A DNA stretch of 47,335 nucleotides from NCBI GenBank assembly GCA_030595125.1, contig JAUVDV010000042.1, positions 1 to 47,335 on the forward strand, written 5' to 3'. The position numbers and the translations under genes were made by a program. Below are positions 8,993 to 25,356 of this stretch, piece after piece. Source of the stretch: Deltaproteobacteria bacterium (GTDB lineage: Bacteria > Myxococcota_A > Polyangia > JAAYKL01). Position 1 is the stretch's first letter. Every line of letters starts with the position of its first letter. A model generated the notes under the pieces. The model was not told the DNA's origin and ran no database searches. It saw only the letters and a list, made by a program, of their open reading frames with translations.

Positions 8993-9189
8993 CCGCGCCC
9001 TGAATAGGGCGCGGTCAGGATGAGCTTGTGTTCCCACCAAGCCTGAGAATCCACCGCCCAAGCCCGCAGGGCTTGCATGTCAGACGGGTCGGGCAGCCCG
9101 ACGCTTTAAGCCCTCGGGGCTTGGCCGAAGGAATCAAAGGTCAATGAAGACAACTAGGCCATCCTGACCGCGTCCTCATAAGGGCGCGG
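8993..9189. repeat. Hairpin-rich element A with 30-bp terminal inverted repeats (REPIN/MITE-like)
   Basis: This fills most of the 374-base gap 8961-9334. The left arm 8993-9022 and right arm 9160-9189 are inverted repeats matching at 26 of 30 positions. Each arm contains its own palindrome: CCGCGCCCT and AGGGCGCGG around a 4-nt loop, followed by TCAGGATG. Between the arms are three triloop hairpins: 9059-9075 (CAAGCCC/GGGCTTG), 9088-9102 (GTCGGG/CCCGAC) and 9108-9122 (AAGCCC/GGGCTT). No reading frame is supported. The rest of the gap, 9190-9334, holds only a weak G-run/C-run inverted repeat (9226-9266) and the leader of the next gene. The plan matches element B at 18458. Confidence 0.72.
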
Positions 9190-18334: not shown

Positions 18335-18457
18335 TACCTCGTCACCTTTTTGATGAGGAGATCAGGGCGACGCGGGCGTTAATGATTGATCGCATCCTCT
18401 CATGTACAATATTCGACGCCACAATTGCCCAATGTTGTCGGCACTCCCTGCGCCAGC

Positions 18458-18611
18458 ACCGCGGAAATAAATCCCGCGGCCAGAAATGCGCCACTTCGTG
18501 TCGGAAAGGGCTTCGCCCTGAAGCACTGAGAGCCCCAAGGGCTGTTTCTTTTCTTGAGGCCTATGGCCTTTTTTGTTCTTCATTTCTGGCCGCGGGATTT
18601 ATTTCCGCGGT
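18458..18611. repeat. Hairpin-rich element B with perfect 31-bp terminal inverted repeats (REPIN/MITE-like)
   Basis: It occupies the middle of the 339-base gap between the Cys-rich lipoprotein and parE. Arms 18458-18488 and 18581-18611 are identical over 31 bases in inverted orientation. Each arm has an internal palindrome (CCGCGG, nine bases, CCGCGG) followed by CCAGAAATG. The interior carries three triloop hairpins: 18507-18519 (AGGGC/GCCCT), 18531-18543 (AGCCC/GGGCT) and 18557-18569 (AGGCC/GGCCT). No credible gene lies in it. The rest of the gap holds only an imperfect stem at 18338-18357. Confidence 0.78.
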
Positions 18612-18673
18612 ACAGAGTCAGGCGAAATGCATCGTTGAAGATGTGATAAATCTTCAGCGCATGTTCGCCCCTT

Positions 18674-25261: not shown

Positions 25262-25356
25262 GGGAGCGGATGGGTACCTGGTGGGCCCTGCGGACTTCAA
25301 ATCCGACATTGCGCGTTAGTAGCGTGCTGGGTGGGTTCGATTCCCACACGTTCCCG
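25262..25356 (+). tRNA. selC: Selenocysteine tRNA (anticodon UCA)
   Basis: A 95-base tRNA-Sec. The acceptor strand GGGAGCG pairs with CGTTCCC (one G-U), and an extra eighth position gives G-A. The anticodon loop CTTCAAA (25295-25301) presents TCA at 25297-25299. A long variable arm folds as GCGCG/CGTGC. The T arm is GTGGG-TTCGATT-CCCAC, and the discriminator base is G. CCA is not encoded. These features (long variable arm, UCA anticodon, extended acceptor/T domain) are those of selenocysteine insertion, which also needs SelA, SelB and SelD, not found here. Its last 41 bases overlap the 3' end of the PHP gene on the other strand. Confidence 0.93.

What the first reader, a model, noticed from the sequence alone, without database searches (positions are those of the whole stretch)
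18458..18611. Second hairpin element with perfect 31-bp inverted repeats and the same plan as element A
Both elements have a 21-22-base palindrome next to a YCAGRA(A)TG-like segment at each end and three GC-rich triloop hairpins inside, but differ in sequence. That suggests a family of related non-autonomous elements. The shared end motif GGYCAG.ATG is a hint of a common mobilising enzyme, such as a REP-associated transposase.
Basis: partly seen in the sequence, partly recalled or inferred. Interest (0 to 1): 0.68.

Follow-up and report, generated by a model that had tools for sequence, protein, structure and literature searches.

The report
Hairpin mini-transposon of an IS200-like transposase
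The 152-base hairpin is one of about 15 complete copies of a gene-less "passenger" transposon in this genome, and a sister species carries the full version, in which the same two ends flank a single-strand DNA transposase gene; this is a known style of mobile DNA with an unusual build.

Summary
In detail: a 152-bp element (18459-18610) with 30-bp perfect inverted ends (31 with the flanking A/T pair), a 21-nt palindrome plus CCAGAAATG tag at each end, and three triloop hairpins.

The genome (a MAG; the congener with the full element is labelled Deltaproteobacteria) holds about 41 copies of the arm and 15 complete inverted pairs. Two congeners also have the family; the 56 other relatives searched do not.

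In congener G001 the same arms flank a 142-aa Y1 (HUH) transposase gene in two ~616-bp copies. Window element B is therefore a non-autonomous derivative (MITE) of that element. A 230-bp copy in the window's own genome still carries the end of the transposase gene.

Element A is the same thing for a different, 53% identical transposase, present as full-length copies plus a graded series of deletions. Six co-diverged arm types (palindrome + CAVRAT(G)-like tag) flank members of one transposase clade in this bacterial family.

So "related non-autonomous elements" is right. "A common mobilising enzyme" is better read as sibling enzymes, each with its own arms. They score as IS200/IS605-type, not as RAYTs, yet have inverted REPIN-like ends. 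New variant of a known kind; the transposition chemistry is inferred.

The parts
18459..18610 (.). Element B: 152-bp non-autonomous element (MITE/REPIN-like) with 30-bp perfect inverted ends
   Evidence: 15 inverted-arm pairs in the genome
18459..18479 (+). Left palindrome CCGCGGAAATAAATCCCGCGG
   Evidence: folds as ssDNA hairpin; 100% identical in 14 full copies
18480..18488 (+). Inner tag CCAGAAATG (reads 5'-CATTTCTGG-hairpin on the other strand; position equivalent to the guide/GTAG foot)
18459..18523 (+). End corresponding to the tnpA-upstream end of the autonomous B element (61 of 65 nt identical to G001:C102)
18507..18519 (.). Internal triloop hairpin 1 (AGGGC-TTC-GCCCT); stem kept, loop changed, in the autonomous copy
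18531..18543 (.). Internal triloop hairpin 2 (AGCCC-CAA-GGGCT), in the region that varies between copies
18557..18569 (+). Internal triloop hairpin 3 (AGGCC-TAT-GGCCT) followed by T-run; terminator-like on the + strand
18581..18589 (-). Inner tag of the right arm (CATTTCTGG on +)
18590..18610 (-). Right palindrome CCGCGGGATTTATTTCCGCGG
18381..18458 (.). Left part of a longer repeated unit in which this B copy is embedded (conserved at six other loci)
18611..18656 (.). Right part of the longer unit, ending in a tagged hairpin ATCGT-TGAAGAT-GTGATAA-ATCTTCA (18631-18656)
8993..9189 (.). Element A: sibling non-autonomous element with CCGCGCCC..GGGCGCGG palindromes and TCAGGATG tags; its arms flank five A-type Y1 transposase genes in the same genome

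Best explanation
Element B is a miniature, non-autonomous transposable element: the two ends of an IS200-like element without its gene. The autonomous parent is about 616 bp long, encodes a 142-aa Y1/HUH transposase (TnpA-B), and is bounded by two inverted arms, each a 21-nt palindrome plus an inner CCAGAAATG tag. B arose by loss of the tnpA interior and replacement of the middle by other small hairpins, and it spread because TnpA acts on the arms in trans. Shown: shared arms, the autonomous copies, a deletion intermediate, conserved ends with variable middles, and presence/absence between sister species. Inferred from the known chemistry of HUH/Y1 transposases: the arms fold as hairpins in single-stranded DNA (for example on the lagging-strand template), the 4-nt foot beside the hairpin guides cleavage, and the element moves by TnpA-tyrosine cleavage and re-joining. 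Element A is the parallel product of a sibling transposase, TnpA-A.
For: Two G001 loci have a Y1 tnpA between inverted B arms. One end matches the window element at 61 of 65 nt, the other at about 29 of 30. TnpA-B hits Pfam Y1_Tnp at E 6e-19, passes NCBIfam IS200/IS605, and aligns with solved IS200/IS605-type TnpA structures over the HUH region and, for the best hit, the Y motif. Own-genome copy C18:47100-47329 has B ends around the 3' end of a tnpA. Among 14 full copies the palindromes and tags are 95-100% identical and the middle 69%, with several different interiors. Some insertions are shared between species by their flanks; others, including the window's, lack a B copy at the matching flanks in congeners. 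The A family shows the same path: complete 619-620-bp copies, then pairs at 486, 483, 414, 351, 348, 344, 338, 264, 229, 228, 197, 147 and 122 bp, with truncated tnpA in C25 and C120. Six arm types pair with six members of the same TnpA clade; all 48 stem positions pair, against a mean of 38.5 with halves swapped.
Against: The window's own assembly has no intact B-type tnpA (best own hit 53%), so B may be orphaned there, or the gene may lie in an unassembled gap; several B copies sit at contig ends. No clean B insertion/empty-site pair was found: the intergenic spaces that lack B are otherwise rearranged, so exact cleavage points and target are unknown. Part of the amplification may have been of the longer outer unit rather than of B alone.
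Confidence: 0.87

Rival explanations
1. B is a true REPIN: a REP doublet moved by a domesticated, single-copy RAYT (TnpA-REP).
For: Inverted palindromes with a foot next to the hairpin, folding into one long hairpin, are the REPIN plan (PMC3116915). Type C arms have a GTGG foot like canonical GT[AG]G REPs.
Against: The transposases score 16-25 bits on NCBI's RAYT model (cut-off 80) but 65-77 on IS200/IS605 (cut-off 55). The foot of B is CTGG and of A is CTGA. The genes are multicopy units with the arms at their ends (five A-type genes). The two longer Y1 proteins in the genome (300 and 315 aa) have no such arms.
Confidence: 0.07
2. The mobile unit is the longer outer repeat (about 18381-18656), and B is only its inner part or an old insertion carried along.
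For: Seven G000 loci share the left outer part at 94% or more. Every right outer end examined in G000 lies next to B or a B remnant. The outer right end is itself a tagged hairpin.
Against: Several B copies lack the outer parts (C50, C95, C132:2292). The autonomous tnpA copies end at the B arms and lack the outer hairpin end. No outer unit with its own tnpA was found.
Confidence: 0.25
3. B is a cis-acting RNA element such as a bidirectional terminator or mRNA stabiliser, not a mobile element.
For: The window copy lies between a + strand ORF and a - strand gyrB/parE-like gene, so between convergent genes, and hairpin 3 is followed by a T-run.
Against: Dispersed near-identical copies with conserved ends and variable middles, and autonomous parents with the same ends, need mobility. 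Terminator function may be a by-product.
Confidence: 0.1
4. B is a classical MITE of a DDE transposase, with terminal inverted repeats and target duplications.
For: Perfect 30-bp inverted repeats.
Against: No target duplication is apparent at the ends in the listed flanks, and the gene found between B ends is a Y1/HUH enzyme.
Confidence: 0.02

Closest known systems
TIRtrons / TIRYT transposases (Di Nocera et al. 2013, PMC3733652)
   Same: RAYT/IS200-like Y1 genes flanked by terminal inverted repeats, some double-palindromic, with moderately abundant dispersed families of the same repeats, single or in dimers.
   Different: Most TIRYTs were later placed in TnpA-REP subclass 2.1; ours pass the IS200/IS605 model. 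The GGGGWSAS motif common in TIRtron repeats is absent. Our tnpA units are multicopy, with a graded series of deletion derivatives.
REPINs and RAYTs (Bertels and Rainey 2011, PMC3116915)
   Same: Inverted doublet of tagged palindromes forming a long hairpin, dispersed in many copies, dependent on a Y1 enzyme in trans.
   Different: RAYTs are single-copy and not self-mobile, with a GTAG-type foot; here the transposase gene itself is bounded by the arms and multicopy, with feet CTGG, CTGA, GTGG, GTTG, CTGT and GTAA.
IS200/IS605 insertion sequences and their PATEs (PMC7290912, PMC3119063)
   Same: Enzyme type, single short tnpA gene, hairpin ends, gene-less derivatives by core deletion, residual solo palindromes.
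   Different: IS200/IS605 elements and PATEs are described as lacking terminal inverted repeats; here the arms are perfect inverted repeats.
TnpA-Y1 subclass 1.2 and class 3 (Quentin et al. 2018, PMC6006769)
   Same: Y motif Y---Q--HH in types A, D, E and F (RH in B and C), close to subclass 1.2. Class 3 is described as intermediate between IS and REPtron, with repeated atypical structures.
   Different: Subclass 1.2 is described as low copy, generally without terminal structures and mostly in Cyanobacteria and Bacteroidetes.

Membership tests
MITE (non-autonomous transposon) | no coding capacity; ends shared with an autonomous element; multicopy | tested here: met
   152 bp; same ends as the tnpA units in G001; 15 inverted pairs
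Y1/HUH transposase family (PF01797), for the partner gene | Y1_Tnp domain with HUH and catalytic tyrosine motifs | tested here: met
   68.9-70.7 bits (cut-off 23); HLH and YIRNQ present
IS200/IS605 insertion sequence | TnpA of the IS200/IS605 type | tested here: met
   NF033573 65.0 bits for B, 76.5 for A (cut-off 55)
IS200/IS605 insertion sequence | no terminal inverted repeats (subterminal hairpins only) | tested here: not met
   ends are 25-31-nt inverted repeats in types A, B and C
IS200/IS605 insertion sequence | insertion 3' of a fixed 4-5 nt target, no target duplication | tested here: inconclusive
   no duplication apparent in listed flanks; no clean empty site to map the target
IS200/IS605 insertion sequence | single-stranded DNA transposition | not testable with these tools
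   needs biochemistry
RAYT / REPIN | enzyme of the REP-associated tyrosine transposase type | tested here: not met
   NF047646 16.3 bits for B against cut-off 80
RAYT / REPIN | GTAG or GTRG foot at the hairpin | tested here: not met
   B CTGG, A CTGA; only type C has GTGG
RAYT / REPIN | inverted doublet of palindromes forming a hairpin, dispersed | tested here: met
RAYT / REPIN | transposase gene single copy, not self-mobile | tested here: not met
   five A-type genes in one genome, two B-type genes in G001, with arms
TIRtron | Y1 gene flanked by terminal inverted repeats that also form a dispersed family | tested here: met
TIRtron | enzyme groups with the described TIRYTs | not tested
   their sequences were not at hand
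TnpA-Y1 subclass 1.2 | Y---Q--HH motif | tested here: inconclusive
   met in types A, D, E and F; B and C have RH; C-terminal domain not compared
PATE | subterminal palindromes without terminal inverted repeats | tested here: not met
   perfect inverted ends

The most novel reading that the evidence does not exclude
This clade of short IS200-type transposases with inverted, foot-tagged palindromic arms is a living intermediate between ordinary IS200 elements and REPIN/RAYT systems: the transposase still moves itself, while its arms already work as REPIN-like doublets that diversify type by type with the enzyme.
Probability: 0.3. Interest if true: 0.6.

Novelty: new variant of a known kind. Interest (0 to 1): 0.42.

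Why it matters
How REPINs and their captive transposases arose from IS200-like elements is an open question (PMC3116915, PMC6006769). Here one bacterial family offers several matched enzyme/arm pairs, with full-length copies, graded deletions and miniature copies side by side, and palindromes that change while the tag position stays. That makes the recognition code (hairpin, foot, cleavage site) and the step from self-mobile IS to trans-mobilised hairpins directly testable with small proteins and short oligonucleotides.

Tried and rejected
Rfam found no match here, only a tRNA-Sec elsewhere in the window. I looked for clean empty sites by searching joined flanks of 12 insertions in three genomes: syntenic places without B exist, but the intergenic DNA around them is replaced, so no cleavage site or target could be mapped. 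C21:11960-12072 looked like an empty outer unit but keeps 10 nt of a B arm, so it is a deletion product. G002:C47 keeps exactly one B palindrome between the outer parts, a solo palindrome left by deletion or excision. A DDE-type MITE was rejected: the gene between the arms is Y1. RAYT membership was rejected on the HMM score and copy number. The two long Y1 proteins of the genome (C83, C64) have no such arms. The genome-wide protein scan added only closely related copies.

Full report
WHAT IS THERE. The element at 18459-18610 is 152 bp long. Each end is a 21-nt palindrome (CCGCGGAAATAAATCCCGCGG) followed on the inside by the tag CCAGAAATG; the two 30-nt arms are perfect inverted repeats, 31 with the flanking A/T pair. 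Three triloop hairpins lie inside. The whole folds far better than shuffled sequence (z -9.0, 0 of 200).

HOW MANY. The window is contig C66 of a 5.39-Mb, 203-contig assembly. An arm pattern with up to two mismatches hits 42 places, 0 for the reversed control. One of the 42 (C91, two mismatches) is a type C arm; the other 41 form 15 inverted pairs plus solos. Several copies lie at contig ends, so counts are lower bounds. Of 59 genomes searched, only the window genome and its two congeners carry the family. A public record of the congener is labelled 'Deltaproteobacteria bacterium' MAG.

THE PARENT. In congener G001 two places have B arms about 616 bp apart. Between them lies a 142-aa gene for a Y1 transposase: Pfam Y1_Tnp at 69-71 bits, NCBIfam IS200/IS605 65 bits over a cut-off of 55, NCBIfam RAYT model 16 bits under a cut-off of 80, and recognisable similarity to solved TnpA structures of this type, including IS608. 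The window element's left 65 nt match the tnpA-upstream end of this unit at 61 positions; the right 30 nt match the other end with about one difference. A third copy in congener G002 is cut by the contig end.

INTERMEDIATES. In the window's own genome, C18:47100-47329 has both B ends around the 3' end of a tnpA whose reading frame stops early. Among 14 full B copies the palindromes and tags are 95-100% identical, while the middle is 69% identical and comes in different versions, some with an unrelated hairpin. That is the pattern expected if only the ends matter for movement. Comparison of flanks shows insertions shared by congeners (for example C50 in G000 with C258 in G002; C132:2292 in G000 with C254 in G001) and others absent there: the window locus has no B copy at the matching flanks in G002 (C87) or G001 (C488).

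ELEMENT A AND THE WIDER CLADE. The arms of element A flank five A-type tnpA genes in the same genome (one of the five, in C162, has a broken left arm). There are 64 A arms in G000, 24 and 17 in the congeners, and none in three more distant genomes of the family. A pairs run from 620 bp (with the gene) down to 122 bp, and some intermediates carry truncated tnpA. TnpA-A and TnpA-B are 53% identical. Four further members of the clade each have their own arms: type C (G000:C91), D (G001:C21), E (G012) and F (G005). The arm plan is constant: palindrome, then a tag TCAGGATG, CCAGAAATG, CCACGATG, CAACGATG, ACAGGATT or TTACGATG. Across the six types all 48 stem positions pair; swapping 3' halves between types gives 38.5 on average, and 4 of 720 arrangements reach 48, which is what sharing of a stem by A and F and of a 3' half by B and E allows. 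With six types this is modest evidence, but the palindromes do change on both sides.

A LONGER UNIT. The window copy is embedded in a longer repeated unit: 18381-18458 on the left and 18611-18656 on the right are conserved around B at other loci. The right end is itself a hairpin with the tag ATCGT (18631-18656). In G000 every right outer end seen adjoins B or a B remnant; G002:C47 holds the outer unit with a single B palindrome in it. B copies without the outer parts exist, and the autonomous units end at the B arms, so B is a unit of its own, later co-amplified with or nested in the outer one. I could not decide which.

MECHANISM. Most likely TnpA recognises each arm as a hairpin in single-stranded DNA, with the 4-nt foot (CTGG for B) in the position of the guide sequence of IS608 and the GTAG foot of REPs (PMC8266576), cleaves with its tyrosine, and re-joins. 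B supplies only the ends and depends on TnpA in trans. The hairpin-forming sequence, the foot and the enzyme are shown; cleavage, strand choice and target are inference from the family. Because G000 has no intact B-type tnpA in the assembly, B there may be orphaned, moved by an unassembled gene, or cross-mobilised by a sibling enzyme.

PLACE AMONG KNOWN SYSTEMS. The enzyme is of IS200/IS605 type; the inverted arms are not, since IS200/IS605 elements and PATEs are described as lacking terminal inverted repeats. The arms resemble REPINs, but the enzyme fails the RAYT model and is multicopy. The arrangement is closest to the TIRtrons of PMC3733652. The Y motif is that of subclass 1.2 in four types, a subclass described as lacking IS features. 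I file it as a new variant: TIR-bearing, Y1-driven mini-elements with self-mobile parents (self-mobility inferred from copy number and arms).

POSSIBLE SIDE ROLE. The window copy lies between convergent genes, the right one a DNA gyrase B/topoisomerase IV subunit-like gene, and contains two terminator-like hairpins on the + strand (0.3 expected). It may end transcription there; this is a guess.

Noticed in passing
window 25262-25355 (+): Selenocysteine tRNA (Rfam tRNA-Sec, 61.9 bits), so the organism probably makes selenoproteins.
   Followed up: no
G002:C47:11916-12099 (L204): Outer unit with exactly one B palindrome and nothing else between its halves: a solo palindrome left by deletion or excision, comparable to core deletions of PATEs.
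   Followed up: partly
L066 (G000:C91) and L011, L022, L025: A third arm type (C: CCGCGGGTATAAAACCCGCGG-CCACGATGCGC) occurs in clusters and beside B copies, and flanks another Y1 transposase gene.
   Followed up: partly
L010 1250-1560 (G000:C95) and dozens of places in G000, G001 and G002: A stretch of about 110 bp at the end of a gene matches dozens of loci across the three congeners at about 73-84%; probably a shared C-terminal segment of a large protein family.
   Followed up: no
L018 (G000:C177:11255-11605): A B end fragment lies between two A arms, so the families are nested in each other.
   Followed up: partly
L012, L013, L014, L017 interiors; L018/L019 flanks: Another recurrent hairpin, CCCCCTATCCCC..CCCTTTCCCCCGG..GGGGAAAGGG, sits inside some B copies and beside others.
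   Followed up: no
L118 (G002:C330), L120 (G002:C192), L185 (G134): More distant Y1 transposases (Y---Q--HH or a similar Y motif) are also flanked by inverted repeats (16-43 nt), so the arrangement may extend beyond this clade.
   Followed up: partly
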